Virus record (IMG/VR): IMGVR_UViG_3300042868_005937
Span: 1-20,068 of that record
DNA from: a virus
Direction: 5' to 3' (one strand)
Length of the DNA stretch: 20,068 nucleotides
Shown: one piece after another, positions 2,715-15,607 of the stretch
How positions within the stretch are numbered: position 1 is the first letter of the stretch
How the letters are laid out: every line of letters starts with the position of its first letter
The notes under the pieces: generated by a model
What the model saw: the letters and a program-made list of their open reading frames with translations, nothing else
The model's database searches: none
What the model was told of the DNA's origin: nothing
Made by a program: the position numbers and the translations under genes

Positions 2715-3140
2715 TTATTTATAGTTTTTTAATTCTCTTTTGGTATCTCTTTCAATGTCTTTAGATTTAATGACATCTTTTTTATCATATGTTTTTTTCC
2801 CTTTACCAACCCCAATTACAATTTTAACCAATCCTTTAACAAAGATTAGTTCCAATGGAATAAGAGCGTAACCTTTAACAACAAACTTATTTCTAATTTT
2901 ATTGATTTCCTTTGAGTTTAGTAATAATACTTTATCTCTTGTTTCTTCAGGTGAGAATTGATTATTTTTATTAACATATAACCCTTTAAGGATTATTGAA
3001 TTGGATGTAATCACACAGAAAGGATCGGTAAAATTACATTTACCATTACGAATGGATTTAACCTCATCTCCTTTAAGGATAACACCAGCGGTGTATTGTT
3101 CTTCAATGGTGTAATTATAAAATGCTTTCCTGTTTTTCAT
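2715..3140 (-). CDS. smpB: SmpB, tmRNA-binding trans-translation protein
   Basis: SmpB binds tmRNA and delivers it to stalled ribosomes. The sequence follows the family from end to end: 'NRKAFYNYTIEEQYTAGVIL' then 'GDEVKSIRNGKCNFTDPF' at the N-terminus (the family has NrkA.HdY.i...yeAGi.L.G.EVKSlR.Gk.nl.DsF), 'LLLNSKEI' in the middle, 'KGYALIPLELIF' and 'VKIVIGVGKGKKTYDKKDVIKSKD' towards the end, and a basic tail of about 20 residues. At 141 aa it is slightly shorter than typical bacterial SmpB (about 150-160 aa), mostly through a shorter mid-loop. It has its own TATATTTG promoter and leads an operon into prs. No tmRNA gene was seen here, so it presumably works with host tmRNA. Confidence 0.93.
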   Translation of the reverse strand: MKNRKAFYNYTIEEQYTAGVILKGDEVKSIRNGKCNFTDPFCVITSNSIILKGLYVNKNNQFSPEETRDKVLLLNSKEINKIRNKFVVKGYALIPLELIFVKGLVKIVIGVGKGKKTYDKKDVIKSKDIERDTKRELKNYK

Positions 3141-3152: not shown

Positions 3153-3578
3153 TTATTTATTTATTACAATTCCAATTAATTTTTTAAGGCAAGCAAGTTC
3201 TGCTTCTTCGTAAGTGTCAAAATCTCCACTATAAAATGGTTGAGTATCCACACCATCACCCATTTTTATTTGAAAATCATAAATCCATTGGTTTGGAGAA
3301 TCTACATCATAAACTCTTGTATCTACAAAACTTCTTAAATTACACTTCTCTCTAAACCATCTAAATGCTTGTTGGTAAAGTGGTGCGGTTATCATTTTTT
3401 CACTATTCCCCAAATGTCTATTATGTAAACCAGAACCTTTTATTGAATCTAGTGATTGTTTTCCGTATATGGTTAATTTACCATTTGTAAATAATGCCAT
3501 ACATTCTTCATCAAAACCTAATTCTTTAAGTTTTAAAGACTCTTCATAAGGCACAAATTCTTTTTCTATTTTGATCAT
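3153..3578 (-). CDS. 'PYEEALALKELGFDE' family phage protein, copy 1 (141 aa)
   Basis: This is one of four paralogues between 3153 and 5206. The start is ATG 3578; it shares ATGA with the stop of the gene upstream. Family marks are the N-terminal 'EFVPYEESLKLKELGFDEEC', the middle 'ITAPLYQQAFRWFREKCNL', and the C-terminal 'FDTYEEAELACLKKLIGIV'. The region between the first two marks is variable and carries the substrate- or partner-specific part, if there is one. I recall the family as very common in Bacteroidota phages and prophages, without a known function. It is soluble with no signal peptide. Confidence 0.85.
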   Translation of the reverse strand: MIKIEKEFVPYEESLKLKELGFDEECMALFTNGKLTIYGKQSLDSIKGSGLHNRHLGNSEKMITAPLYQQAFRWFREKCNLRSFVDTRVYDVDSPNQWIYDFQIKMGDGVDTQPFYSGDFDTYEEAELACLKKLIGIVINK

Positions 3579-3913
3579 AATCTTATTATCTCAATAAATT
3601 TTGAGGTATCTTGTTTAATTATTAGATGTTGGAATCTTTCATAAAATTTAACATCTTCCGCTTCGTAAACATGAATAAACCAATTACGTTTTTGTAATTC
3701 TTTTATATCTTCCATCGTAAACCACTTATATAAAGTATCTAACGAATCCGTTGCTGATAACCACCCCACTAATTCAGGATCATAATCCATTTTAAGTTGG
3801 TTATTTAGACAAAAATTGAAGTCTCCATGTATCAATCCTGTAAACTCCCCCTGAGTATCATACCATAACCCTTGTTTTGTGTTTATATTACACACTCTAT
3901 AAAATTTAGTCAT
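3575..3913 (-). CDS. Conserved hypothetical phage protein (112 aa)
   Basis: I place the start at ATG 3913 (MTKFYRVCNINTKQGLWYD), overlapping the end of the upstream gene by 8 bases; a longer reading would need a non-ATG start. It shares ATGA with the start of the 3578 gene. The protein combines 'FYRVCN...GLWYD..GEFTGLIHGDFNFC' with a C-terminal half holding 'MEDIKELQKRNWFIHVYEAEDVKFYERFQHLIIKQD'. I recall similar small proteins from Bacteroidota phages but no function. It is a single-copy gene inserted between two members of the PYEEALALKELGFDE family. Confidence 0.8.
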   Translation of the reverse strand: MTKFYRVCNINTKQGLWYDTQGEFTGLIHGDFNFCLNNQLKMDYDPELVGWLSATDSLDTLYKWFTMEDIKELQKRNWFIHVYEAEDVKFYERFQHLIIKQDTSKFIEIIRL

Positions 3914-4325
3914 ATAATTTATTTTTAACAATCTCGATTAATTTTTTTAAGCATTCCAATTCAGCTTCTTCGTACGTAGAGTACTTTCCATCACTATATA
4001 ACCTTTTACAAGAATCAAAACAATCTTCATCATTCCAATCCCTATCTTTAGAATCGTAAATTGTAAAGTCAAAGTAGTAATGTCTTGAATTATCAGTTAA
4101 TTCAATACTACAAGAAAGTTTATATTTCTCTCTAAACCATCTAAATGTTTGTTGATATAGTGGTGCAGAAATTAAATAATTATCTTTCGTATTAATAGCA
4201 TTTTCCCAATTTACAAATTCAATAGTGATATTACCGTCTAAATCATATAACGCTAGACATTGTTCATCAAATCCTAATTCTTTTAAGACTAAAGCCTCTT
4301 CGTATGGTACAAATTCCTTATTCAT
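3906..4325 (-). CDS. 'PYEEALALKELGFDE' family phage protein, copy 2 (139 aa)
   Basis: The start is ATG 4325 (MNKEFVPYEEALVLKELGFD), which matches where the other copies begin; the frame stays open upstream to 4427 but only with a TTG start and into the previous gene. It has the three family marks: 'EFVPYEEALVLKELGFDEQC', 'ISAPLYQQTFRWFREKYKL' and 'YSTYEEAELECLKKLIEIV'. The middle holds a strand-rich region with aromatic residues ('HYYFDFTIYD'). No clear promoter was found in the 62 bases upstream, so it may be read from the promoter of the 4774 gene. Function unknown. Confidence 0.82.
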   Translation of the reverse strand: MNKEFVPYEEALVLKELGFDEQCLALYDLDGNITIEFVNWENAINTKDNYLISAPLYQQTFRWFREKYKLSCSIELTDNSRHYYFDFTIYDSKDRDWNDEDCFDSCKRLYSDGKYSTYEEAELECLKKLIEIVKNKLYD

Positions 4326-4387
4326 AGTTATTTTATTTAATAGTTTAATACTACTTTTATATTCTTCAGTATCTTTAATATTCAAAA

Positions 4388-4774
4388 TTACTTCTCCTTT
4401 ACAATTTCGATTAACTTTTTTAGACAAGCCAATTCAGCCTCTTCTTCAGAAGAATATTCACCAAAATCCCTAATTAATTCCACCGGGTATTCATCAAACC
4501 TTCTTGGATGTACCATATCATCAATTTTAAAGTAAAAACTTTCCCCATAATATTGAGTAATATTTGGATACAATTTATATTTACTCTTAAAAAAATTAAA
4601 TGCTTGGTAAAACAATGGAGCGGAAATCAAATTAGGGTTTTTATTATGATTCCCTAATTCAAAACCTTTATATATTCCAATATCATCCCAATACCAAGTT
4701 ATACAAGGATCATCAAAACCTAACGATTTTAATTCAATAGATAAATCAAGTGGAACTAATCTAATTTCTTTCAT
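4388..4774 (-). CDS. 'PYEEALALKELGFDE' family phage protein, copy 3, divergent (128 aa)
   Basis: This is the most divergent of the four copies. The N-terminus 'IRLVPLDLSIELKSLGFDDPC' replaces the usual PYEEAL wording, the middle is 'ISAPLFYQAFNFFKSKYKL', and the C-terminus is 'YSSEEEAELACLKKLIEIV'. The start is ATG 4774, 4 bases after a TATATTTG box at 4779-4786. It is probably cotranscribed with copies 1 and 2. Function unknown; the pattern of a fixed frame around a variable centre is the same as in its paralogues. Confidence 0.82.
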   Translation of the reverse strand: MKEIRLVPLDLSIELKSLGFDDPCITWYWDDIGIYKGFELGNHNKNPNLISAPLFYQAFNFFKSKYKLYPNITQYYGESFYFKIDDMVHPRRFDEYPVELIRDFGEYSSEEEAELACLKKLIEIVKEK

Positions 4775-4778
4775 CTGA

Positions 4779-4786
4779 CAAATATA
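4779..4786 (-). promoter_or_regulatory. Bacteroidota-type -7 box for the gene at 4774
   Basis: TATATTTG on the minus strand, 4 nt before the ATG. No TTTG was found at the -33 distance, so it is weaker than the others. Confidence 0.5.
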
Positions 4787-5206
4787 TTATTTATTTTTTA
4801 CTATTTGGATTAATGTCTTTAGACATTCAAATTCTGCTTCTTCTTTAGAAAAACATTCAGTATATGTATTAAAATTATTAGAACAAAATTCCATAACTTT
4901 ATTATCTACCTTTTGTCTTGTTTTGTAAATGAAAAAATCCCACATTTCAACTTCTTCTCCATTTTCATCCTCAACTAAGTCATCCTCAAATGAACAATCA
5001 AGTTCATACTTCTCTCTAAACCATTTAAATGCTTGTTGGTAAAGTGGTGCGTTTACAGAACCTATATGTTCATTTTTGAACAGTGATAATGTTTTAGTAT
5101 TATCGTTTCTGTCATAAGAACAATTCCAAAATTTTAAGCAAGGTTCATCAAAACCTAATTCTTTTAAAGCTAATGCTTCTTCATATCCAATAAATAATTT
5201 TTCCAT
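4787..5206 (-). CDS. 'PYEEALALKELGFDE' family phage protein, copy 4 (139 aa)
   Basis: The start is ATG 5206 (MEKLFIGYEEALALKELGFD), 4 bases after a TATCTTTG box. The family marks are 'YEEALALKELGFDEPC', 'VNAPLYQQAFKWFREKYEL' and 'FSKEEAEFECLKTLIQIV'. The variable centre includes an acidic stretch ('EDDLVEDENGEEVEMWDFFIYKT') and a C-proximal insertion with Cys and Asn. It is the most upstream copy of the array and has its own promoter. Function unknown. Confidence 0.85.
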   Translation of the reverse strand: MEKLFIGYEEALALKELGFDEPCLKFWNCSYDRNDNTKTLSLFKNEHIGSVNAPLYQQAFKWFREKYELDCSFEDDLVEDENGEEVEMWDFFIYKTRQKVDNKVMEFCSNNFNTYTECFSKEEAEFECLKTLIQIVKNK

Positions 5207-5460: not shown

Positions 5461-5492
5461 CAAAAATATAGAACGATTACCTATTTTCCAAA
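5461..5492 (-). promoter_or_regulatory. Bacteroidota-type promoter for the gene at 5456
   Basis: TTTG (5489-5492), 20 nt, TATTTTTG (5461-5468), then the ATG after 4 nt. The -33 box lies inside the 3' end of the aminotransferase gene. Confidence 0.6.
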
Positions 5493-6730
5493 ATATTTAT
5501 CATATTTTCTATAACACCCTGATGTTCAGTTATGTCTTTCAACTTAATTGTCCCTATTGATAACCTAAACCAACCTTTATTTTCAGTTGATCCAAAATAT
5601 TCAAATGGAACTAATCCAACTTTACATTCATCAATAAGGAAATCTAACATTTCTTCCAAACTATTAAACTTATCCATATAATCCAAATAAACTGATATAT
5701 AGATAGCACCATCAGGTTTTTTATAATCAACCTTACAACCATTAGATTTCATTGTTTCTAATACATCACAAATACTATCACATATTTGTCCAAATGTATT
5801 ATTTCTTGTTGATAAAAAGGTGTCAATACCAGAATAAGGGTTATCAACATTGGTTGCTAAGTATTGTCCTACCCCAACTTGTTCAGGTTTATTAGCCCAA
5901 GCACCAATATGACTGAATATTTCACCCGCTTTCTTAATTAAATGTTCAGGTCCAAACATCCATCCAACCCTAACACCTGTCGCAGCCAATGATTTTGAAA
6001 TACCATCAACACATACCAAAAAATCTTTGATTTGAGGAACTAAATTAATTGGATGATGTGTTTGTATTCTTGATAAATCTGAATAAATCTGGTCAAAGAA
6101 AAGATATACTGGTTGGTATTCATTATTCGTTTCCAACCTTCTTTTATTTTCATCCACTATGATTTGACAAATATCTTTAAGAACATCAGGATTGATTATT
6201 TTCCCTGTTGGATTTTGTGGGGAACAAAGACATACTATCCTCGCTGTTTGAATATTATCTTTAATTTGTTTTGCTGTTGGGAAGAAATCATTCTCAGGGG
6301 AACATTCAATTTTAATTGGTTTCCCATCGTGTAAGAATGTATAATGGTTATTATTCCAACTTGGAACTGGAAATATAACTTCATCACCTTTATTAATAAT
6401 TGTCTTAAATATTGTATAAATAAGAGGTCTAACACCAGCACCAATAAGTATTTGATTTGGTGAGTAATCTATAAAATGACTTCTTTTAAGATGTGATGAA
6501 ACTGCTTCCCTGAGTGATAATTCACCAACAGGTGTTGGGTAATTTGTATTAGAAATATTAAAGTTCCATTGTATGTAATCATTTAATTTTTCAGGTATAG
6601 GATACAATTGAGAATCGAAATCCCCAATTGTATAATTATATACCTTTTCAGTCTTGGCTTTGATTTTACTTGATATTTTTAATATCTCGGATCCAATAAT
6701 ATTTTCACCATAATTTGATAATTCACTCAT
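5477..6730 (-). CDS. PLP-dependent class I/II aminotransferase (417 aa)
   Basis: This is a fold-type I aminotransferase of the aspartate-aminotransferase group, full length for the family (about 400 aa). It moves an amino group between an amino acid and a keto acid. Visible landmarks are Tyr64 and Gly69 in 'NYPTPVGE', Trp125 in 'PVPSW', Asn173 in 'SPQNPTGKI', Asp213 and Tyr216 in 'FFDQIYSD', the Schiff-base Lys246 in 'DGISKSLAATGVRVGW' with Arg254, and substrate-carboxylate Arg389 in 'WFRLSIGT'. All key residues are present, so it should be active; the substrate cannot be told. It is the last gene of a six-gene operon from 8771, starting 1 base after its neighbour's stop. Such enzymes are rare in phages; amino-acid supply or making a modified nucleotide or glycan precursor are both possible. 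Confidence 0.93.
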   Translation of the reverse strand: MSELSNYGENIIGSEILKISSKIKAKTEKVYNYTIGDFDSQLYPIPEKLNDYIQWNFNISNTNYPTPVGELSLREAVSSHLKRSHFIDYSPNQILIGAGVRPLIYTIFKTIINKGDEVIFPVPSWNNNHYTFLHDGKPIKIECSPENDFFPTAKQIKDNIQTARIVCLCSPQNPTGKIINPDVLKDICQIIVDENKRRLETNNEYQPVYLFFDQIYSDLSRIQTHHPINLVPQIKDFLVCVDGISKSLAATGVRVGWMFGPEHLIKKAGEIFSHIGAWANKPEQVGVGQYLATNVDNPYSGIDTFLSTRNNTFGQICDSICDVLETMKSNGCKVDYKKPDGAIYISVYLDYMDKFNSLEEMLDFLIDECKVGLVPFEYFGSTENKGWFRLSIGTIKLKDITEHQGVIENMINILENR

Positions 6731-6731
6731 T

Positions 6732-7697
6732 TTAAAATTCGTAATTTGCTACTGGATTATTTTCATATCCTTGTTCTTGGGGTACTTCCATTTCATCACC
6801 CCCCATGTCCATTTCCGACATTGGTTCTAATTGTTCATCCTCATAATAAGATATAAGATGTTTAATTTCAAAATCATCCAATAAAGATGCGTTTTGAATG
6901 TTTTTTTCCTTACAATAATCAATAAATAATGATTTAATTTGGTGAGGTATTGGAGCAAACATCATTTCCATTTTGGAATCCCAATCAGTCCAACAAGAAA
7001 ACTTCGTTGAGAACTCAAATATCTCCCTCATTTCGTAATCTTTATATGAATCCCCTGAATCCTTTGAATCCCCAAAAACATCTTCAATATCGTCCTGAAT
7101 AACAGACATACTCTTTCGTTTAAGACCACTATCAGTTTTAGGTTTTAATACTGTTTTATAATATGAGTCATACATATCGTAATATAAACCAATCTTCCTA
7201 TTTTTTTCCTTTTCAATGAAATAGGCTAGAATACCTTTATCACTATATCTATAAAAATATTCAGATTGAGTTACACACCATTTAGTTCCTCTACCATAAA
7301 CAGATGCTGCGTCATATGAAAGAGGTAAAAATAACATACATTTGTCATCCTCATAAAGGATTTTAATTTCTTTTTTGGCTTTACCAATTGATTTTATTAA
7401 AGTAGCGTCTTTAATTGATTGTTTAATAGCCGATAGGTTTTTATATTGATTTAAGTCAGCATTTTCAATTAACCCATTTGTTGATAACTCATCAAATTTA
7501 GTTAAAAACCCTAAAATGTACTCCATTTCAGTTATTGCGGTATGTTCAAAATCATTTGATAGATTTTTTGTAAATCTAACCATATGTTCTACATATTTTT
7601 TTGTTTTGGAATTGTCAATATTATTAGCCAATTCAATAAAATCAACAGGTTTGATTTTATCTTTAAATTTTTCTCTTATTACATCAATTTTAGCCAT
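6732..7697 (-). CDS. WC-motif family protein A (321 aa)
   Basis: This is one of four paralogues in the window (others at 10774, 12649 and 14828). Shared features in order are an N-terminal 'REKFKDK' helix, 'KKYVEHMVRFTK' (about 33-44), 'DLNQYKNLSAIKQSI' (about 81-95), a 'YEDDKCMLFLPLSYDAA' strand pair (115-131), and the core 'YGRGTKWCVTQ' with Trp140-Cys141, followed by 'YFYRYSDKGILAYFIEK'. After this comes a family-variable region and an acidic Met/Glu-rich tail. I cannot name the domain; the invariant Gly, Lys/Arg, Trp and Cys look like a binding or catalytic site. The start overlaps the upstream gene by 8 bases and the next gene follows after 1 base, so it sits in the aminotransferase operon. 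Soluble, no signal peptide. Confidence 0.85.
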   Translation of the reverse strand: MAKIDVIREKFKDKIKPVDFIELANNIDNSKTKKYVEHMVRFTKNLSNDFEHTAITEMEYILGFLTKFDELSTNGLIENADLNQYKNLSAIKQSIKDATLIKSIGKAKKEIKILYEDDKCMLFLPLSYDAASVYGRGTKWCVTQSEYFYRYSDKGILAYFIEKEKNRKIGLYYDMYDSYYKTVLKPKTDSGLKRKSMSVIQDDIEDVFGDSKDSGDSYKDYEMREIFEFSTKFSCWTDWDSKMEMMFAPIPHQIKSLFIDYCKEKNIQNASLLDDFEIKHLISYYEDEQLEPMSEMDMGGDEMEVPQEQGYENNPVANYEF

Positions 7698-7968
7698 TTG
7701 TTTCTATTTCGTATTGTGTGTTAATATTTATTTTATTATTATTGAAATCTTTTAATAATGAATCTCCAAATTCATCTACCCATTTATCATAATCGGTAAT
7801 TCTTTCTTGTTCTTTATGTAAAATCTTTAATTTTCCATTATCACCGAGTATTGTTATTTTTTCTTCACCTTCAGTAATATCAATAGGTGAGAAGTTAATC
7901 ATTTGAGCCATTATAGCAAAAAACTCAAATTTTGACTTATCTTTTAATGTATCTTTTAAATCACTCAT
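7690..7968 (-). CDS. Small hypothetical protein (92 aa)
   Basis: The start is ATG 7968, sharing ATGA with the stop of the lipoprotein gene; the end overlaps the next gene by 8 bases. The protein starts with a charged helix ('SDLKDTLKDKSKFEFFAIMA'), then a strand pair ('KITILGDNGKLKILHK') and a C-terminal helix ('YDKWVDEFGDSLLKDF'). No family recognised. The translational coupling on both sides shows that it belongs to the aminotransferase operon. Confidence 0.8.
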   Translation of the reverse strand: MSDLKDTLKDKSKFEFFAIMAQMINFSPIDITEGEEKITILGDNGKLKILHKEQERITDYDKWVDEFGDSLLKDFNNNKININTQYEIETNG

Positions 7969-8174
7969 TGTTCTATCGTATATTCATTATGTTTTATAAT
8001 CCATTTAATTTCACCACCTTTGTATAATAATAATTGACCTTCATCGGTTATTATTACTTTATCACAAACATAAGTTGTGTCTGTAATAACTTTGGTTTGT
8101 TTAGTTGTTTCAATATTACAAGATAAGATATTAAATATCAATATCACTCCAATTATACGGAATACCATTGTCAT
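7965..8174 (-). CDS. Small predicted lipoprotein (69 aa)
   Basis: Starts at ATG 8174 or 8168 both give a short hydrophobic leader, 'MVFRIIGVILIFNILSCN', ending in a plausible lipobox (I-L-S-C). Cleavage would leave an acylated Cys and about 50 residues: 'IETTKQTKVITDTTYVCDKV', strands with 'GQLLLYKGGEIKWIIK', and a charged end. The mature part would face the periplasm from the inner or outer membrane. The gene overlaps its neighbours on both sides. Phage lipoproteins can act in lysis (spanin-like), superinfection exclusion or receptor masking; nothing here decides among these. Longer reading upstream would use TTG. Confidence 0.7.
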   Translation of the reverse strand: MTMVFRIIGVILIFNILSCNIETTKQTKVITDTTYVCDKVIITDEGQLLLYKGGEIKWIIKHNEYTIEQ

Positions 8175-8505
8175 AATCAATTGTTTTAAATGAATTTATT
8201 AAATTATCTATTTTAGTTAATTCTTTACTTTTAGGGTCATCCTTCAATAGAAGTTTTTGATAGTTTTTGACTAATAACATCATTTCATCAAATGAATTAA
8301 CCGCATTTAAAATAAACACAGCGTCTTTTCTGGTATCAATAATATTTTGTTCATCTCTATCTTCCTCATCTTCTGCGGTTATTAAAGCAACAAATAAACC
8401 ATTTTGATCAACCAAATCAATTGAACCGAATGTTTCCGAATCATTCTCATCATTTCTTTCTTCCATTGTTAAAGGAAGTTTCATACTTCTATCAAACATT
8501 ACCAT
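8131..8505 (-). CDS. Acidic hypothetical protein (124 aa)
   Basis: The start is ATG 8505 or ATG 8499; the latter forms TAATG with the stop of the upstream gene. The centre ('DQNGLFVALITAEDEEDRDE' followed by 'DTRKDAVFILNAVNSFDEMM') has the layout of small phage proteins that combine a strand pair with an 'ANArLIAaAPdLLeAL' helix, which I recall as common in phages and of unknown role. The similarity is by pattern, not by many identities. The C-terminus ends in 'IPYNWSDIDI'. It overlaps the lipoprotein gene by about 44 bases, so the operon is tightly coupled. Confidence 0.75.
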   Translation of the reverse strand: MVMFDRSMKLPLTMEERNDENDSETFGSIDLVDQNGLFVALITAEDEEDRDEQNIIDTRKDAVFILNAVNSFDEMMLLVKNYQKLLLKDDPKSKELTKIDNLINSFKTIDYDNGIPYNWSDIDI

Positions 8506-8771
8506 TTTTCAGGAACTCCATTTCCTATATCATTTTTTTTAAATCCAAATAAAACCCATCTATAATAAACCAATAAAATCACATTTACTGATATATTAAA
8601 CCACGAAGCAATACCCATAGTTCCAACACCAAATAAAGGTAATAAACCTGTTGTTATTGAAAATAACGTAAATGACAAACCAATAAAAAGTAATCCTTTA
8701 CTATTTTTAAAACAAATGGTATGACTCTTAATCTTCCTTTCAGGAAACCATTCAACAATATAATTTTTCAT
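8499..8771 (-). CDS. Small two-helix membrane protein (90 aa)
   Basis: Two hydrophobic helices are visible, at about residues 27-47 and 52-75, joined by a short loop (FGVGTMG). The N-terminus is basic ('FPERKIKSHTICFKNSKG') and the C-terminus is 'GFKKNDIGNGVPEKW'. This gives an inner-membrane hairpin with both ends probably in the cytosol. It is the first gene of the operon that ends with the aminotransferase. The 50-base gap to the plus-strand lysozyme gene holds the promoters of both. A small hairpin protein could be a holin-like or exclusion protein, but no motif supports either. Confidence 0.8.
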   Translation of the reverse strand: MKNYIVEWFPERKIKSHTICFKNSKGLLFIGLSFTLFSITTGLLPLFGVGTMGIASWFNISVNVILLVYYRWVLFGFKKNDIGNGVPEKW

Positions 8772-8808
8772 AATTTTATATATAATAAATTAAAACCAAA
8801 AAAGGAAA

Positions 8809-8816
8809 TATTTATA
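8809..8816 (+). promoter_or_regulatory. TATTTATA box before the lysozyme-fusion gene
   Basis: TATTTATA ends 5 bases before ATG 8822. The same box, at a spacing of 3-5 bases, precedes the plus-strand genes at 10774, 12649 and (TATTTATG) 13668. T4-type late promoters (TATAAATA) sit at a similar place relative to the transcript start, so a phage-encoded late sigma factor is possible. Confidence 0.55.
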
Positions 8817-8821
8817 AAAAT

Positions 8822-10753
8822 ATGAGCGATATAAACAAAAAGAAATTATTCATACCATTAACCGAATCAGAAGAATCTAAAAAAGGTAAATTATTTATAC
8901 CCAGAAGATTATCGGGAGAGAATTCCAGATTTATCCAATGGAATAAAGAACAGCCGATAGTTAATGGTGTTCAGATAAATCAATATACACATGATGGTAA
9001 AAAAGAAGGATATTGGGAAGAAGGATATGATAATGGACAATTACATTCAAAAGGTTCATATAAAGATGGTAAAAAAGATGGTATATGGGAGTTTTATTAT
9101 GAAAATGGTAATTTAGAATATAGGGGTTCATTTAAAGATGGTGAAGAAGATGGTATATGGGAATCTTATTATGATAATGGTAAATTAAATTATAGGGGTT
9201 CATTTAAAGATGATATAAAAACAGGTATTTGGGAAAAATATTGGGATAATGGACAATTATATTCTAAGGGTTCATTTAAAGATGGTAAATATGATGGTAT
9301 ATGGGAATATTATTATGAAAATGGACAATTAAGTTCTAAAGGTTTATATAAAGATGGTAAAAAAGATGGTATTTGGGAATCTTATTATACTAATAGACAA
9401 TTATTGTCTAAGGGTTCATATAATAATGATTTAAGAGATGGTATTTGGGAAAAATATTATGATAATGGTAAATTAAAATCTAAGGGTTCATATGAAAATG
9501 ATAAATTAATTAAAGAATTACCAATAACTGAATCAGAAGAATCTAAAAAAGGTAAATTATTCATACCAAGAAAATTATCTGGTGAAAATTCTAGGTGGTC
9601 TGATTGGAATAATTCACAACCAATAAAAGATGGTGTTAGAATTAACCAGTATGATATGGAAGGTAAGGAAACCGGTATATGGGAAGAATATTATAGTAAT
9701 GGACAATTATATAAAAAAGGTTTATATGTAAATGGATTAAGAGATGGTTACTTTGAATATTATGGTGTTGATGGGGAATTATTGTATAAGGGCTATTATA
9801 AAGATGATAAAATGGATGGTATATGGGAAGAATATCATATAAATGGTAAATTACATTCTAAGGGTCCATATAAAGATGATTTAAAGGATGGTATATGGGA
9901 AGAATATTATATAAATGGTAATTTAGAGTTTAAAGGATTATATAAAGATGATGAATTAGTTAAAATATTACCATTGTATGAAAGTAAAACCCCATCATTC
10001 TTATTAAAAGAAGAAATGGGTTTAATAAGGGAAGGGAATGTTCAGGATTATATCAATAACGTAATATCAAAGATTAAAAACTTACCTTACGAAACAAAAA
10101 AGAAATATCTTACAATAGCAATTTCAACCCTTTTAGGTTATACATCTTATCCAACTATTCAAACAATTTTTAATAACTTACCAGATAAAGAAGTAAAAGA
10201 AATTGTCCATAAAATAATGAAAAAGAAGGATAAAAAATCCATATTTAATGATGGAACAAAACTTCGTTTATCTGAAAAAGGTTTTAGACATATTATGGAT
10301 GAAGAAAAACCAAAATTAGTGGCATACTCATTGGGTGATGGTAAAATAACCATTGGATATGGACACGCCGAACCGGTTGAAACAACCAAACTTAAAGTAG
10401 GTGACAAAATAACCAAAGAACAAGCAAAAATATACCTTAAACAAGACCTTAAAATAGCCGCAGATGGTGTAAGAAGAATGTTTAGAGATTGGAAAAAACA
10501 AAATAAAAATTATAAAGTTACTCAAGATATGTTTGACGCTTTAGTTTCAATGGCTTTTAATATAGGTGTGTCAGGTCTTAGAAATACTACTTTTGTTGAT
10601 TATCTTAGAGATGGTAATTATAAAACCGCAGGAAAACTAATTAAACAAACAAAAATTAATAATGATACATTCCCAGGTTTAGAAAAAAGAAGAAATAGGG
10701 AATCTGATATGTTTTTATCATATTTGTCAAAAAATAATAAAATAAATGTTTAA
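8822..10753 (+). CDS. Modular YwqK/MORN-like repeat protein fused to a GH24 lysozyme (643 aa)
   Basis: Modules in order are: residues 8-58, 'KLFIP-LTESEES...KLFIPRRLSGENSR'; seven repeats of exactly 24 residues (Trp at 65, 89, 113, 137, 161, 185 and 209, core DGIWE-YY-NG-L-SKGSYKD); a second copy of the linker (234-278); four more repeats (287, 311, 335, 359); a helical segment (about 390-470); and a GH24 lysozyme domain (about 478-632). In the lysozyme the general acid is Glu495 and Thr510 sits in 'TIGYGH', matching T4 lysozyme Glu11 and Thr26. The residue equivalent to Asp20 is Leu504, with Asp506 two residues on. A C-terminal 'DALVSMAFNIGVSGLR' is typical. Sites P-(L/I)-x-E-S stand at each module boundary (13-15, 235-237, 385-387). 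It may be a virion-borne lysozyme, not a lysis enzyme; no signal peptide is present. Confidence 0.88.
   Translation: MSDINKKKLFIPLTESEESKKGKLFIPRRLSGENSRFIQWNKEQPIVNGVQINQYTHDGKKEGYWEEGYDNGQLHSKGSYKDGKKDGIWEFYYENGNLEYRGSFKDGEEDGIWESYYDNGKLNYRGSFKDDIKTGIWEKYWDNGQLYSKGSFKDGKYDGIWEYYYENGQLSSKGLYKDGKKDGIWESYYTNRQLLSKGSYNNDLRDGIWEKYYDNGKLKSKGSYENDKLIKELPITESEESKKGKLFIPRKLSGENSRWSDWNNSQPIKDGVRINQYDMEGKETGIWEEYYSNGQLYKKGLYVNGLRDGYFEYYGVDGELLYKGYYKDDKMDGIWEEYHINGKLHSKGPYKDDLKDGIWEEYYINGNLEFKGLYKDDELVKILPLYESKTPSFLLKEEMGLIREGNVQDYINNVISKIKNLPYETKKKYLTIAISTLLGYTSYPTIQTIFNNLPDKEVKEIVHKIMKKKDKKSIFNDGTKLRLSEKGFRHIMDEEKPKLVAYSLGDGKITIGYGHAEPVETTKLKVGDKITKEQAKIYLKQDLKIAADGVRRMFRDWKKQNKNYKVTQDMFDALVSMAFNIGVSGLRNTTFVDYLRDGNYKTAGKLIKQTKINNDTFPGLEKRRNRESDMFLSYLSKNNKINV
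8993..9508 (+). repeat. Seven in-frame 72-bp (24-aa) YwqK/MORN-like repeats
   Basis: The conserved Trp of the D-G-I-W-E core recurs every 24 residues exactly (seven times). Units differ mainly by codon-third changes and by the residues after the core. The repeats are coding and form a beta-hairpin array in the family. Confidence 0.9.
9659..9961 (+). repeat. Four in-frame 72-bp repeats, second block
   Basis: These are the same 24-residue units, with the core at residues 287, 311 (GYFE variant), 335 and 359. The block follows a second copy of the KLFIPR/SGENSR linker, so linker plus repeats was duplicated as one module. Confidence 0.88.
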
Positions 10754-10760
10754 TTTTAAG

Positions 10761-10768
10761 TATTTATA
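10761..10768 (+). promoter_or_regulatory. TATTTATA box before the 10774 gene
   Basis: TATTTATA, then AGGAT, then ATG 10774 (5-base gap). The AGGA could also act as a weak ribosome binding site. Confidence 0.55.
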
Positions 10769-10773
10769 AGGAT

Positions 10774-12597
10774 ATGGGATTTTTACAATTTTTATACGAA
10801 GGGAAAGTTGATGATTTTAAAAAATTATTCAGCGATAAATATACAACCCCTGAACAAATAAACGCAATTATCAGAGTTTCATCTGAAGTAGATGATAAAC
10901 ACAAATATTTAATTTGGTTAGCAAAAACACTTACCAAACCAGTATCCAATAATGAAATTGCTTTCGGTGAAGAATTATCCGAAGCACAAGAACTTTTAAT
11001 GAAGTTTAAAACAATTGGTCCTAATCTACCAATTAAAGATATTTCACAATATAAAAGTATATCTGAATTAGCAGAAGCCATTAAAACCTACGAAAATAGA
11101 CAAAGAAGAACAATTAAAAAGGTTGATGGTGCTGATATAATCTATGATGACGATGATTATACAATTATCCATCCAAAAGAATATTTTGCATCTTGTTTTT
11201 ATGGTAAAGGTTCTAAATGGTGTACAGCTTCAGAAGATACTTCTAGTTATTGGTATTCATATAATAAAGAAGCGAAGTTATTTTATTTCTTATCAAAGAA
11301 ATTACCTACAAGTAATAACTTTTATAAAGTAGCGTTAGAACAAAAATACGATGGAAAAAGAATTTTTTGGGATGCACTTGATAAACCTTTTACTTCTGGT
11401 TGGATATTAGGGACTGATTACTTAAATGATTTACTTAAAGTAGTTGATCAATATATGAAAGATAATTACTCAAAAGAAATTGATATATTTGGTGATGAAG
11501 AAAAAGCAAAGATTGAAAGAGAAAGACTACAAAGGATTGAAACTCAACGAAGATTAAATCAAAAAAGAGAGGATGCTGAAAGTAGAAGGGAAACCGATGA
11601 ATGGAATCCTGAAGAAGTCACTCACGGTGAAGTTGGAGCACACGCTTGGGCTTTATTCACTTATTTAACCAGATATGAAAATCTTGAACCAAAAGAGCCG
11701 GGAGATGCTGAAAGACTTGAATTTATTGATTCTGAATTAGATAGATTAGGTGAATTACAAACTCAATATGAAGTTGAAGGTAGGAATTTAACTGATATTG
11801 ATGCTGATATTTCAGCATTAGAAGAAGAAAAAGATGAGTTAGAAAAAAGAGTTGATGTATATGATATGATACCTGAAAGAACTTATGGTATGTCAGAATT
11901 TAGTGTGGCAAGTCCTGATTATGATGGTTATGAATGGACTGTTGGAGATGAAAGTCAAATAGAAATTGCCGCTTACGATAGTGTTAAAGATTCACTTCAA
12001 GATAATGGGTATGAATATCTACCTAAATATCTTGTTGAACGACATATTGATGCTGACACTGTGGCTAATGAGGCGAGAGAGAATTACAACTATTGGGTTT
12101 ATGATAGTCCTGAGTCGTATTTAGATGAAACAGATAGAGAATTAAGCAAATCACAACAAAAAGAGATTGATGAATATCAAGAAAAGATTGATAAATATAC
12201 CTCTTTCCGTGAAAAAGCAACTGAACGTCAAGAAAATTATGATCCAGATAGTAGAGAATGGAAAGCACTTGAAAAGGGTATAGATAAACTAACGGATTTA
12301 ATATCTGATCTTGAATATGATATTGAAAACATTAAAGAAGAACCGGATGGGGAATGGGATGAGGGGAGAATGGAAGAAGTTATTGATCAATATGTTGAGG
12401 AAGCAAGACGTGATCCATTAGGGTATTTAAAAGATTTAGGTGTTGAAAAATATGATGATTATATAGATGATGATGAGTTAATTAAAGATATAATTGACTC
12501 TGATGGGTATTATAACACATTAAATCGTTATAATGGTGAGGGTGATACTGTTGTATGGGATGATGAAATATATCATATAATGAATACAGATAGATAA
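10774..12597 (+). CDS. WC-motif family protein B with long coiled-coil tail (607 aa)
   Basis: The N-terminal part is homologous to the other three WC-motif proteins: 'DFKKLFSDKY' (14-23), 'KHKYLIWLAKTL' (42-53), 'DISQYKSISELAEAI' (89-103), 'IIYDDDDYTIIHPKEYFAS' (122-140), and the core 'YGKGSKWCTASEDTSSYW' with Trp149-Cys150. From about residue 230 there is a long, highly charged, mostly helical region with coiled-coil heptads (ERERLQRIETQRRL..., LEEEKDELEKRV...) and a C-terminus 'DYIDDDELIKDIIDSDGYYN' ending in 'GDTVVWDDEIYHIMNTDR'. The N-terminus MGFLQFLYE|GK resembles a T4 capsid-targeting peptide with a (L/I)-x-E cut site. The role is unknown; it may be a virion-internal or injected protein. 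It lies 20 bases after the lysozyme fusion. Confidence 0.88.
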   Translation: MGFLQFLYEGKVDDFKKLFSDKYTTPEQINAIIRVSSEVDDKHKYLIWLAKTLTKPVSNNEIAFGEELSEAQELLMKFKTIGPNLPIKDISQYKSISELAEAIKTYENRQRRTIKKVDGADIIYDDDDYTIIHPKEYFASCFYGKGSKWCTASEDTSSYWYSYNKEAKLFYFLSKKLPTSNNFYKVALEQKYDGKRIFWDALDKPFTSGWILGTDYLNDLLKVVDQYMKDNYSKEIDIFGDEEKAKIERERLQRIETQRRLNQKREDAESRRETDEWNPEEVTHGEVGAHAWALFTYLTRYENLEPKEPGDAERLEFIDSELDRLGELQTQYEVEGRNLTDIDADISALEEEKDELEKRVDVYDMIPERTYGMSEFSVASPDYDGYEWTVGDESQIEIAAYDSVKDSLQDNGYEYLPKYLVERHIDADTVANEARENYNYWVYDSPESYLDETDRELSKSQQKEIDEYQEKIDKYTSFREKATERQENYDPDSREWKALEKGIDKLTDLISDLEYDIENIKEEPDGEWDEGRMEEVIDQYVEEARRDPLGYLKDLGVEKYDDYIDDDELIKDIIDSDGYYNTLNRYNGEGDTVVWDDEIYHIMNTDR

Positions 12598-12637
12598 TAA
12601 AAATTCACTATATTTGAACCCTTTAATAAAAATAATA

Positions 12638-12645
12638 TATTTATA
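12638..12645 (+). promoter_or_regulatory. TATTTATA box before the 12649 gene
   Basis: TATTTATA ends 3 bases before ATG 12649, in a 51-base intergenic gap that is otherwise A/T-rich. Confidence 0.5.
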
Positions 12646-12648
12646 TAT

Positions 12649-13614
12649 ATGACAAAAAATGAAGCAAAAAGAGCCTTTTTAGATAAAGGTATATTGAATA
12701 AAGACGCATTTGATAGATTTTTAAGTGAAGATCCAACAACACAAAAGAAATATGTGTTTTATATGATTAAACAATATCTAAAACAATCAGATGATGCGGG
12801 TAATAAAGTATCTGATTTATCGGTAGATGATTTAGATATGGGTATTTTATCACCTATATTTTCATATGTGACAGAATACAACACATTATTAAATAGAGTT
12901 CCTCAAGATAAGAAAGATATATATAAACTTTCTTTTGATGAGTTAGCCGATGTTGTTGATACATTGAACACATCAAGTGGTGAAAGTGATAAATCATCAT
13001 TAAGGAAAAAAGCTCGTGAGAATTCTGATACGTTATTAGATAATGTTAATGGGGTTTCAGTCGTAGCACCTTATAATCACGATGCTATTTGTTACTTTGG
13101 TCAAGGAACAAGATGGTGTGTATCTATGGACACTTCAGGTCATTGGATAGGTTATTACTTCAACCAAAGAAATACTTTCTACATTATAAGTGTTATAGGT
13201 GAGGACACTAAAAGAAAAGTTAAAGAACATTATGAAAATAAATGGGAATCAATGGGGTTAGGTAAACCATCATGGAACTCTAAAAAAAGAAAATGGACGT
13301 TAGTTAAGAATGGTAAAGATGTTGATGATATAGCGGCTGAAGATGAAAATGAAGCGGCTGAATTATTCAAACAAAGATTAAACCTACCATCATTAAAGGG
13401 TTATAGTATTGAAAACTATGGTTATAGAAACTTATATAAAGTAGCATTTTTAGTTCCACCATTAAAAGATAGGAAAGGTGAGATTATGAGGGATGAGGAT
13501 AATCAACCATTACCTGATATGGATAAAGCACATATTTATTCTTCTGACGATATATCATTCAATAAAGGATGGAAAGAATACTTTAAAGTAATTGGTTTAG
13601 ATGAATATATTTAA
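12649..13614 (+). CDS. WC-motif family protein C (321 aa)
   Basis: This is a divergent member of the family: 'KRAFLDKGILN' (7-17), 'TTQKKYVFYMIKQYLKQ' (30-46), 'DIYKLSFDELADVV' (90-103), a strand pair ending 'VVAPYNHDAI', and the core 'YFGQGTRWCVSMDTSGHW' with Trp156-Cys157 (Arg in place of Lys), then 'NQRNTFYIISV'. Compared with the other members it has an insertion after the core with 'GKPSWNSKKRKWTLVKNGKD'. The C-terminus contains 'YGYRNLYKVAFLVPPLKDRK' and ends 'FKVIGLDEYI'. The gene has its own TATTTATA box and is closed by a strong terminator. Soluble; function unknown. It is the second WC protein in the plus-strand block. Confidence 0.85.
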   Translation: MTKNEAKRAFLDKGILNKDAFDRFLSEDPTTQKKYVFYMIKQYLKQSDDAGNKVSDLSVDDLDMGILSPIFSYVTEYNTLLNRVPQDKKDIYKLSFDELADVVDTLNTSSGESDKSSLRKKARENSDTLLDNVNGVSVVAPYNHDAICYFGQGTRWCVSMDTSGHWIGYYFNQRNTFYIISVIGEDTKRKVKEHYENKWESMGLGKPSWNSKKRKWTLVKNGKDVDDIAAEDENEAAELFKQRLNLPSLKGYSIENYGYRNLYKVAFLVPPLKDRKGEIMRDEDNQPLPDMDKAHIYSSDDISFNKGWKEYFKVIGLDEYI

Positions 13615-13618
13615 AATT

Positions 13619-13644
13619 AAAAACCCCTTCATTGGGGTTTTTTT
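13619..13644 (+). terminator. Rho-independent terminator after the 12649 gene
   Basis: AAACCCC (13621-13627) pairs with GGGGTTT (13634-13640) around a 6-base loop, followed by a T run to 13644. It lies 5 bases after the stop codon. Confidence 0.85.
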
Positions 13645-13655
13645 GTGTTCCAAAC

Positions 13656-13663
13656 TATTTATG
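13656..13663 (+). promoter_or_regulatory. TATTTATG box before the 13668 gene
   Basis: This is a one-base variant of the TATTTATA box, 4 bases before ATG 13668 and just downstream of the terminator at 13619-13644, so a new transcript must start here. Confidence 0.5.
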
Positions 13664-13667
13664 TTTA

Positions 13668-14105
13668 ATGGAGAAGATTAAATTAACGGAACAAGATTTA
13701 ACCAATATAGTTAAACGAATAATATTGGAGGATGAAAAACCTAAAAAGAAATTATTTGTCCCAAGAAAAATTGATGAAAGAAAGATTGAACATCAAAAAA
13801 TAATTGATGGTGAAGTAGAAAAGATTAAAAAAAGTCCTTTTGGTTCAATATCAAAAAAATTTTTATTTGAGTGGTTACAGGAAAATAATTTAGATCAAGA
13901 ACTAAAACTTTCTTACAAAGGTCCATCTTTAGGTGAAGTAGGTATGACATCATATGATAATTCAAAAGGTGAAGTTACACTATTTTTAGAATCAAAAGTA
14001 ACATCTTTAGGTAATGTAGGGATACGTTTTAAAATATCCGACATTCAAATAGGGTATGTTGAACCAAATGAAATGGGAGATGATAAATTTTATCCAATAG
14101 ATTAA
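13668..14105 (+). CDS. Small protein with LTEQDL leader and KLFVPRK segment (145 aa)
   Basis: I choose ATG 13668 (MEKIKLTEQDLTNIVKRIIL) over an upstream in-frame start because the terminator T-run and TATTTATG box would otherwise lie inside the gene. The N-terminus (L-T-E-x-D-L-x-x-I-V-K-R-I-I-x-E) resembles a leader that I recall in front of many unrelated proteins of large environmental phages; I-L-E at 19-21 is a possible prohead-protease site. Then comes 'KKKLFVPRKIDER' (26-38), shared with the next gene and, as KLFIPR, with the lysozyme fusion. The C-terminal half is a glycine-containing beta domain ('LGEVGMTSYDNSKGEVTLFL'). Function unknown; virion-borne is an inference. Confidence 0.82.
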   Translation: MEKIKLTEQDLTNIVKRIILEDEKPKKKLFVPRKIDERKIEHQKIIDGEVEKIKKSPFGSISKKFLFEWLQENNLDQELKLSYKGPSLGEVGMTSYDNSKGEVTLFLESKVTSLGNVGIRFKISDIQIGYVEPNEMGDDKFYPID

Positions 14106-14107
14106 TC

Positions 14108-14596
14108 ATGAAAATAGTTATAACTGAAGAACAAAAGAAAAAGTTATTTGTCCCAAGAAAAATTGATGAGAGACAGGGACAATTAAAAAAAGAATTGGTT
14201 AAAAAAACCAAAGAACTTCTTTCACGTTTTAATATAACTGAAATAATGAATCATGGTCGTATTGATGATTATGATGAAGTAATAACCGCTGAAGATCATT
14301 TAGATGATGCCTATGAAAAAGTTATTATTGACGGTAAAAACTATCACGGATTTCCAAAAATGGATGACGTTGATGACGAAACAATAGATTTTTTAAACGA
14401 ATGGGAAGAAATGTTGGCAACATACTTAAATACAATTATGCCACAACCATCAGATGAAAGCATATATAAGTCAGAACCTAATGTTATTGGTAGAATGTAT
14501 AGAATAGATATTACCCCATCAAAAATAGATATTAGTTTTTCTTATGCTATTGTGGAATACATTAATAAAGAAGGTAAAGAAACTATTACCCTTTAA
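14108..14596 (+). CDS. Small protein with ITEEQ leader and KLFVPRK segment (162 aa)
   Basis: The start is ATG 14108, 2 bases after the stop of the preceding gene. The leader is much shorter (MKIVITEEQKKKLFVPRKID), with I-T-E at 5-7 and the same KKKLFVPRKIDER segment at 10-22; the DNA of this segment is nearly identical in both genes, so it was copied recently or is under strong constraint. A charged helix follows (25-40), then an acidic middle and a strand-rich C-terminus ('YRIDITPSKIDISFSYAIVEYIN'). The two small genes form one transcript ended by the hairpin at 14604-14623. The 3' end overlaps the convergent minus-strand gene by 11 bases. Confidence 0.82.
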   Translation: MKIVITEEQKKKLFVPRKIDERQGQLKKELVKKTKELLSRFNITEIMNHGRIDDYDEVITAEDHLDDAYEKVIIDGKNYHGFPKMDDVDDETIDFLNEWEEMLATYLNTIMPQPSDESIYKSEPNVIGRMYRIDITPSKIDISFSYAIVEYINKEGKETITL

Positions 14597-14828
14597 TATC
14601 ATCAACCCAAATAGGGGTTTTTTCTCCAACGTAAGCACCTGAAACATTAAAATCAAAGTATTCAATAGCCTCCACCTCATTCATTTCCCTACAAAGGATT
14701 TGAATACATTTAGAGACAGAATAAACCAATCTCATAGATTTGGTATCGACACCGATAAGAGCTTCGTCAAAACCATCGGCTTTAAGGAAACTCTCATCGG
14801 GGTATCTTTCAATAATACTATCAATCAT
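14586..14828 (-). CDS. Conserved small phage protein of unknown function (80 aa)
   Basis: The sequence 'RYPDESFLKADGFDEALIGV' followed by 'MRLVYSVSKCIQIL', 'EAIEYFDFNVSGAYVGEKTP' and 'IWVDD' matches a family that I recall from many tailed phages, including cyanophages; its function is not known to me. It is short, soluble and mixed alpha/beta. ATG 14828 overlaps the stop of the upstream WC-motif gene by 1 base (TAATG), so the two are translationally coupled. The 3' end runs into the convergent plus-strand gene and holds that gene's terminator inside its coding sequence. Confidence 0.88.
   Translation of the reverse strand: MIDSIIERYPDESFLKADGFDEALIGVDTKSMRLVYSVSKCIQILCREMNEVEAIEYFDFNVSGAYVGEKTPIWVDDIKG
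14604..14623 (+). terminator. Rho-independent terminator for the plus-strand block
   Basis: AACCC (14604-14608) pairs with GGGTT (14615-14619) around a 6-base loop, followed by a run of T to 14623. It lies 8 bases past the stop of the 14108 gene but within the minus-strand coding sequence 14586-14828. Confidence 0.65.
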
Positions 14829-15607
14829 TAGGCTTTAGCCTTTATATTAGGTCTATCCTCAATGTGTTTGATAACCGAATCATAAAGGTTAATAAACATT
14901 TCTTTGGTTCTACTACCAAATACAACGTCTTTTACTTCAGTTTTGGTATCTTGAACGTTCCAGAATTCAATGTATTTTTGAATTGCTGTGAATTTCTTAC
15001 CTTTAGTATCTAATCTACTAAAATCTGAACCCAATTTATCGGATGGTAAATAAATACCATAAGTTTCCTTTTGGTGATTTTTCTTAGAGATAAAGTAAAT
15101 CAATACGCTCTTAGAGTATGAATAGAAGTGGTTTGATGTATCTTTTGAAGCTGTACACCATTTAGTACTAGAACCATATGTTAATGACGCTTCATAGGTT
15201 AAAGGTGTTCCGATGATATATTCATCATCTTCAAAATACTTATGAAACTCTTTCTCCCTACGTTTCAACTCACGTTGTTGTTTAGCAGATTCCAAAATTT
15301 TATTGAAATCCTCAACTGATTTATATTTAAAGATGTCTGAATCAGTACCTTTAATAAATCCTTCTTTAGCCAACTCATCAAAATCAGTACAATCTTTATT
15401 GAAATCGTTTTCCAACCAATCAGTAAATTCGTCAAGAATTGACTTTTTAAGGTTTTCAATTTCATCAGTACAAGACACTAACCATTTAGTGTATTTAAAC
15501 TGACTTGACTTATTCTGAGCCGATGGGTCATACTTTTTTAATAAATCCAAAAGATCGATTGACAATTGATCTTTATATTTTTCTTTGATGTCTGTGATAC
15601 TAATCAT
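14828..15607 (-). CDS. WC-motif family protein D (259 aa)
   Basis: This is the shortest of the four paralogues. Family marks in order are 'IKEKYKDQLS' (7-16), 'FKYTKWLVS' (37-45), 'DIFKYKSVEDFNKIL' (91-105), 'YFEDDEYIIGTPLTYEAS' (124-141), and the core 'YGSSTKWCTASKDTSNHFYSY' with Trp150-Cys151, then 'LIYFISKK'. The central Gly of the core (YGxGT) is replaced by Ser. After the core the chain continues about 90 residues to 'IKAKA', ending before the long tails seen in the others. The start is ATG 15607, with a possible GGA ribosome site 8-10 bases upstream and a promoter further up. It is coupled to the small conserved gene after it. Function unknown. Confidence 0.85.
   Translation of the reverse strand: MISITDIKEKYKDQLSIDLLDLLKKYDPSAQNKSSQFKYTKWLVSCTDEIENLKKSILDEFTDWLENDFNKDCTDFDELAKEGFIKGTDSDIFKYKSVEDFNKILESAKQQRELKRREKEFHKYFEDDEYIIGTPLTYEASLTYGSSTKWCTASKDTSNHFYSYSKSVLIYFISKKNHQKETYGIYLPSDKLGSDFSRLDTKGKKFTAIQKYIEFWNVQDTKTEVKDVVFGSRTKEMFINLYDSVIKHIEDRPNIKAKA

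What the first reader, a model, noticed from the sequence alone, without database searches (positions are those of the whole stretch)
6732..15607. Four unnamed 'WC-motif' paralogues in one 9-kb stretch, on both strands
Proteins at 6732-7697, 10774-12597, 12649-13614 and 14828-15607 share, in the same order and at nearly the same residue numbers, a (F/Y)xDK start, a K-K/H-Y helix, a DI..YKS..EL segment, and the core Y-(F)-G-x-x-(T/S)-(K/R)-W-C at residues 140-157, followed by a (D)-T-S-x-x-(F/W)-Y-x-Y...FYFI stretch. Their C-termini differ totally: acidic tail, 380-residue coiled coil, Lys/Trp-rich insertion, or none. A fixed domain joined to variable tails suggests a delivered or regulated effector, or a binding module. 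I know no domain name for it. The invariant Trp-Cys and Lys/Arg may be catalytic.
Basis: partly seen in the sequence, partly recalled or inferred. Interest (0 to 1): 0.8.

Follow-up and report, generated by a model that had tools for sequence, protein, structure and literature searches.

The report
Phage WC-domain family, some probably head-packaged
Four neighbouring genes of an uncultured T4-like phage share a widespread but unnamed protein domain that is almost confined to large viruses; one of the four carries what looks like the address tag by which T4-type phages pack proteins into the head for delivery into the bacterium.

Summary
All four proteins are paralogues: pairwise BLASTP E 4e-4 to 1e-19, and a profile made without them or their near relatives finds them at E 8e-16 to 4e-44. 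There is no Pfam, NCBIfam, PADLOC or PDB match for the core. The closest named family is PcfJ, suggested by fold (E 6e-4) and motif order, not proven by sequence.

New here: the family has two architectures. Long members (430 aa or more) almost always begin with a short hydrophobic stretch ending in L/I-x-E|G/S-R/K, the published T4 gp21 prohead-protease motif. The Glu is invariant in 43/43 orthologues of window protein P2. A tagged relative in phage PA5oct is annotated as an MS-detected 'structural protein'. Short members (P1, P3, P4) lack the tag. I infer that P2-type proteins are packaged and ejected, and that the WC domain acts on the host; its action is not shown. No His is conserved, so a papain-type protease is unlikely. 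Interest 0.6.

The parts
6732..7697 (-). P1: short untagged WC protein (321 aa), acidic C-terminus; WC domain about 7107-7604, W-C codons 7275-7280
10774..12597 (+). P2: long tagged WC protein (607 aa), one of a syntenic orthologue group found in about 80 viral contigs
10774..10800 (+). P2 N-terminal tag MGFLQFLYE|GK: candidate capsid-targeting propeptide with prohead-protease site after E9
   Evidence: E9 invariant in 43/43 orthologues; residues 1-7 are the only segment of 3 or more residues with pLDDT below 50; T4 gp21 motif L/I-X-E (PMC9026906)
10897..11463 (+). P2 WC domain; W-C codons 11218-11223
   Evidence: profile match residues 42-230; AF2 strands 120-125, 129-134, 167-174, 185-191, 196-199
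11464..12594 (+). P2 tail: helical/coiled-coil region and a conserved C-terminal mixed alpha/beta region
   Evidence: AF2 model, pLDDT mostly 80-95; no match in phage records; orthologue conservation
12649..13614 (+). P3: short untagged, most divergent WC protein (321 aa); WC domain about 12754-13221, W-C codons 13114-13119
14828..15607 (-). P4: short untagged WC protein (259 aa); WC domain about 14912-15460, W-C codons 15155-15160; AF2 model pLDDT 81.5

Best explanation
The four proteins belong to one phage-specific family, here called WC, built on a PcfJ-like alpha/beta core with an invariant W-C pair, preceded by a helical region and followed by a changeable tail. Long members such as P2 are internal head proteins. 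An N-terminal propeptide of about 8-15 residues ending in L/I-x-E directs them into the prohead core; a gp21-like prohead protease cuts after the Glu; the mature protein rides in the head and is ejected with the DNA. In the host the WC core acts on, or more likely binds, a host component, and the tail sets the partner. Short members (P1, P3, P4) lack the tag and would act only after expression in the infected cell. Shown: family membership, two architectures, tag conservation, and a Gp23 capsid protein with a matching site in three related genomes. Inferred: cleavage, packaging in this phage, ejection. Conjectured: the host-directed action and its target.
For: Membership. Tag: of 113 distinct complete members, 44 have the motif (39 of them at least 430 aa long) and 69 do not (65 of them shorter); shuffled N-termini give 5% against 44% observed. 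E9 invariant in 43/43 P2 orthologues. Out-of-sample: five further long members found later by profile without the strict motif all begin with [IL].E[GQ] (MKSINYIILETLLNE|G, MNSLYKLLEETVLLE|G, MTNIKYIILEQIINE|G, MAFNFRDVLSELIIE|G, MKFNQIIKSIIVE|Q) and all keep W-C. The motif is about tenfold commoner in the first 15-19 residues than elsewhere in proteins of these loci, including unrelated families, though P2 orthologues make up many of the cases. Capsid protein with LINE|AS at the expected position, beside a gp21-like protease, in three contigs. T4 precedent: L/I-X-E cleavage and a 10-residue capsid-targeting sequence (PMC9026906). PA5oct EST35_0205, which starts MKLFEVFTLYE|DK, is annotated 'structural protein, ESI-MS/MS'. 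AF2 leaves only residues 1-7 of P2 below pLDDT 50. PcfJ link: Foldseek BFVD E 6e-4 to 1e-3, probability 0.99.
Against: Tag and length are not independent of ancestry: independent pairs on the tree give no significant association, so the Fisher p of 3e-20 is inflated. In PA5oct the strict tag is not significantly commoner in MS-detected proteins (18/92 against 10/88, p 0.15; a looser form gives p 0.02, uncorrected), and that MS list includes ribonucleotide reductase, thymidylate synthase and FtsH, so detection is not proof of a virion place. In one whole contig a lenient tag pattern is only slightly enriched at N-termini (15% against 6-14%). Neighbour genes show no single shared function. No direct evidence of a host target.
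Confidence: 0.5

Rival explanations
1. Long WC proteins are structural core or scaffold parts of the head; they are packaged through the same tag but have no action in the host.
For: P2 is conserved and syntenic over about 80 contigs at about 40% identity; coiled-coil tail; the PA5oct member lies directly downstream of EST35_0204, whose counterpart in Paride is annotated terminase large subunit, within a run of structural genes; T4 core proteins are also gp21 substrates (PMC9026906).
Against: Copy number varies from 1 to many per genome, tails vary, and a large untagged class has the same domain; all argue against a fixed head role.
Confidence: 0.25
2. The family is not packaged at all; the N-terminal hydrophobic-x-E-G-R stretch is an ordinary capping helix of the long class, and the proteins are intracellular accessory factors made after infection.
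For: Tag and length share ancestry; PA5oct test weak; short members are common, lack the tag and have the same domain.
Against: Invariant Glu with I/L two residues before and G/S after it in sequences that otherwise vary; the same kind of N-terminus in unrelated proteins of the same phages; lowest model confidence exactly there; PA5oct MS annotation.
Confidence: 0.22
3. The WC domain is a cysteine enzyme (for example a protease or transglutaminase-like fold) and the proteins are catalytic effectors. This concerns the domain's chemistry and can be true together with either packaging reading.
For: C invariant in 217/217 aligned members, and retained in five members found without the strict motif; Cys is also kept in PcfJ.
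Against: No conserved His among columns above 80%; no PDB fold match for either model; the recruitment pattern contained W-C, so the 217/217 is partly circular.
Confidence: 0.15

Closest known systems
PHROG 17056 and PHROG 28193 (unknown function)
   Same: All 59 sampled members match 17056 and 49 match 28193; the same family
   Different: Neither has a name or function in the library; the tag, the two classes and the PcfJ-like link are additions made here
PcfJ-like proteins (Pfam PF14284)
   Same: Same order of elements: strand ending in Pro, helix with (E/Y)G, invariant Cys, aromatic, strand, strand; Foldseek E 6e-4, probability 0.99; sub-threshold Pfam hits in 5/59, best E 0.0011
   Different: H-C instead of W-C; below the Pfam cut-off in the window's proteins; profile-profile comparison not significant
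T4 internal proteins IPI-III and Alt, with capsid-targeting sequences
   Same: Short N-terminal propeptide ending in L/I-x-E, with different passengers behind it (PMC9026906)
   Different: Different passenger domain; cleavage and ejection not tested here
Ejection proteins of the jumbo phage SPN3US
   Same: Large phage that carries many proteins in the head, several cut by a prohead protease, and ejects them (abstracts)
   Different: No sequence relation shown or tested

Membership tests
PHROG 17056 / 28193 family (WC) | Significant profile match over the core | tested here: met
   E about 1e-7 for all four with 17056; P3 and P4 also with 28193; 59/59 sampled members
PcfJ-like (PF14284) | Score above Pfam gathering cut-off (25 bits) | tested here: not met
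   P4 16.9 bits, the other three no hit
PcfJ-like (PF14284) | EG..(h)HCV motif | tested here: not met
   WC family has YG..(T/S)(K/R)WC
PcfJ-like (PF14284) | Same fold | tested here: inconclusive
   Foldseek E 6e-4 to 1e-3, probability 0.99, but low TM-scores (0.27-0.29 by query)
T4-type capsid-targeted internal protein | N-terminal propeptide ending in L/I-x-E | tested here: met
   P2 and 43/43 orthologues; not met by P1, P3, P4
T4-type capsid-targeted internal protein | gp21-like protease in the same phage | tested here: inconclusive
   Recognised by sequence and gene order in three related contigs, no profile search run; not seen in the window, which is only a 20-kb record
T4-type capsid-targeted internal protein | Found in the virion | tested here: inconclusive
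   PA5oct relative annotated from ESI-MS/MS, but that list contains enzymes too; nothing for the window's phage
T4-type capsid-targeted internal protein | Cleavage and ejection into the host | not testable with these tools
   needs experiments

The most novel reading that the evidence does not exclude
WC is a large, unnamed, virus-specific effector superfamily that T4-like and jumbo phages (and, by fold search, some Marseillevirus-labelled giant viruses) use in two forms: pre-packed in the head behind a protease-cut address tag, and made in the cell after infection. The domain together with interchangeable tails would form a host-takeover or counter-defence toolkit.
Probability: 0.35. Interest if true: 0.78.

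Novelty: new variant of a known kind. Interest (0 to 1): 0.6.

Why it matters
If the tag reading is right, the first residues of a phage protein would help to predict which unknown proteins are delivered with the DNA. That turns many hypothetical genes of these T4-like phages into a testable list of ejected proteins, and gives PcfJ, a domain for which the literature search found no described role, a possible relative.

Tried and rejected
PcfJ membership by profile-profile comparison: the expected register appeared in one comparison, but not significant; ranking with a home-made PcfJ HMM gave only diffuse enrichment (13 of the top 50 against 8% expected, related rows). PDB by sequence and by fold for both models: nothing above noise. 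Gene neighbourhood as a clue to function: no repeated partner beyond the P2 synteny block. Tag against tail length as independent evidence: not independent of ancestry. PA5oct MS labels as a test of the tag: weak. The C-terminal part of P2 searched alone in phage records: no match. Named phages are few: Salicola SCTP-2, PA5oct-like Pseudomonas phages, Caulobacter CcrBL9. Plasmids: none. PADLOC: only one weak hit in the coiled-coil tail of P2. Literature searches for PcfJ-like proteins returned nothing useful.

Full report
WHAT IS THERE. The window is a complete 20,068-base IMG/VR record. It encodes the C-terminal part of a T4-type portal protein (phrog_213, E 5e-44) whose best matches are in Microcystis phage Mel-JY01 and Flavobacterium immuto phages, so it is a piece of a T4-like phage. 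The four proteins exist as described: P1 6732-7697(-), P2 10774-12597(+), P3 12649-13614(+), P4 14828-15607(-).

All pairs are significant by BLASTP (E 4e-4 to 1e-19), and a profile built without the window or its close relatives finds all four (E 8e-16 to 4e-44). All match the unnamed PHROG 17056 at E about 1e-7. In a 103-sequence tree P2 sits in a starred, wholly tagged clade, P1 and P4 fall in the large short-protein clade (support 85/93), and P3 is on a long branch. The four therefore look like old lineages collected in one region, not recent duplicates; close relatives keep the same arrangement.

A VERY LARGE, VIRUS-RESTRICTED FAMILY. The GTDB collection of 257 Gb gave 4 loci; plasmids gave none with P4 as query. 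Many genomes carry several members: 7 in a 318-kb contig, 5 in a 196-kb contig. Salicola phage SCTP-2 has at least six WC-core copies close together, plus many more stretches that match only the C-terminal half of PHROG 17056, as if that tail were a separate module. Fold search in BFVD finds PA5oct and CcrBL9 proteins and also proteins labelled Marseillevirus LCMAC201/202. Pfam, NCBIfam and PADLOC have no model for the core.

CORE AND RELATIVES. Columns conserved above 80% are F, D, P, S, Y, G, T, K, W, C, F, Y, G, L, Y, K, K, D; no His is among them. W-C is 217/217, which is partly circular because loci were recruited with that motif, but five members recruited by profile alone with altered surroundings (YGAHSNWC, YGVHSAWC, YGIHSSWC, YGGQNKETQWC, YGGQNKETRWC) keep it too. 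AF2 models of P4 (pLDDT 81.5) and P2 (86.1) show a helical N-terminal part, then two strands, a helix, the W-C region, a helix and further strands. Neither matches a solved structure. The only named neighbours by fold are PcfJ-like phage proteins (E 6e-4 to 1e-3, probability 0.99, low TM-scores). PcfJ has the same order of elements with H-C in place of W-C, but sequence profiles do not prove the link. I treat PcfJ as a probable distant relative, not as the family of these proteins.

TWO ARCHITECTURES AND A TAG. Among 113 distinct complete members, 44 have an N-terminal [IL]xE[GSAND][RKFYWM] motif and 69 do not; 39 of the 44 are at least 430 aa long, 65 of the 69 are shorter. Shuffled N-termini give the motif in 5% of cases against 44% observed. 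P2 orthologues begin MGFLQFLYE|GK, MDFLKLIQE|GR, MNLSKVLLE|GR, MKFLKLILSE|GR, MKFINLLLE|GR and so on; the Glu is invariant in 43 of 43, with I or L two residues before it. Five long members found after the pattern was defined all fit [IL]xE[GQ]. A review of T4 states that gp21 cuts after L/I-X-E, that mature head components lose N-terminal propeptides of 7 to 65 residues, and that the first 10 residues of IPIII suffice for targeting (PMC9026906). In three long contigs with a P2 orthologue, the head cluster shows portal, a protein resembling gp21 (assigned by sequence and order, not by profile search), scaffold and a Gp23 major capsid protein (Pfam PF07068) with LINE|AS at about residue 60. In the P2 model, residues 1-7 are the only segment of three or more residues below pLDDT 50. 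Unrelated proteins of the same phages have similar starts (MKFINILETVISE|QKR, MNINRLIQKVLEE|QRG, MKKVIRLTESQLENIIRKVIAE|QE). In PA5oct, the WC protein EST35_0205 starts MKLFEVFTLYE|DK and is annotated 'structural protein, ESI-MS/MS'.

LIMITS OF THE TAG ARGUMENT. Long and tagged members share ancestry; on independent pairs the association is not significant, so the Fisher value is inflated. Using PA5oct annotations as labels, the strict motif is in 18/92 MS-detected and 10/88 undetected proteins (p 0.15); a looser form gives 23/92 against 10/88 (p 0.02, one of three forms tried, uncorrected). The MS list includes ribonucleotide reductase, thymidylate synthase and FtsH, so it is not a clean virion list. 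A lenient pattern in one 199-kb contig is only mildly enriched at N-termini. Many of the tagged cases are P2 orthologues.

MOST LIKELY WORKING. P2-type proteins are directed into the prohead by the tag, cut by the protease, packed and ejected; short members act after expression. The step from delivery to action is inference. The repeated, tail-swapping copies, the patchy distribution and the absence of a fixed partner gene fit a host-takeover or counter-defence role better than a fixed structural role. The wide conservation and synteny of P2 (usually followed by a gene of about 240-260 aa and preceded by one of about 330-350 aa on the other strand) keeps the structural rival alive; the window and its close relatives have different flanking genes. 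A Cys-His hydrolase is unlikely for lack of a conserved His; a binding module is the better guess.

VERDICT. Observation confirmed; 'unnamed' confirmed; 'delivered' partly supported for P2 only; 'catalytic W-C' not supported. New variant of a known kind, confidence 0.5, interest 0.6.

Noticed in passing
2715-3140 (-): Phage-encoded SmpB (PF01668, E 6e-43), the tmRNA-binding protein of trans-translation; no tmRNA gene in the window.
   Followed up: partly
3153-5206 (-): Four tandem paralogues of a second family ('YEEALxLKELGFDExC ... APLYQQAFRWFREKY ... EEAELxCLKKLIEIVKNK'), 39-54% identical to the first; no Pfam match for the two tested.
   Followed up: partly
8822-10753, 13632-14105, 14108-14596 (+): Three otherwise unlike neighbouring proteins (MORN-repeat lysozyme and two unknowns) share a peptide 'KKLF(I/V)PR(K/R)(I/L)'; near relatives have it too. 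It may be another address or processing tag.
   Followed up: partly
13668-14105 (+): Protein starting MEKIKLTEQDLTNIVKRIILE|DE, an N-terminal type ('LTExxLxxIVxxVIxE(Q/D)') seen on several otherwise unlike proteins of relatives such as contig G142.
   Followed up: partly
8822-10753 (+): MORN-like repeats fused to a phage lysozyme domain (phrog_7; weak match to 'internal virion lysozyme motif' phrog_2083; MORN_2 and Phage_lysozyme confirmed by Pfam in the relative L007).
   Followed up: no
1718-2713 and 5477-6730 (-): A ribose-phosphate pyrophosphokinase (phrog_619) and a class I/II aminotransferase (PF00155) carried by the phage.
   Followed up: no
L124:97-2031 (contig G002): A PcfJ-type HCVGGY domain behind what looks, by eye, like a pol-beta nucleotidyltransferase region, in a contig that also holds 7 WC genes.
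   Followed up: no
L090:283-1494: WC domain followed by TPR-like repeats (by eye) in a Bacteroidia assembly contig of 4.5 kb; two adjacent WC genes, possibly a virus fragment.
   Followed up: no
L005 and the rest of Salicola phage SCTP-2: The C-terminal half of PHROG 17056 occurs alone in many places of the genome, without the WC core, suggesting a mobile tail module.
   Followed up: no
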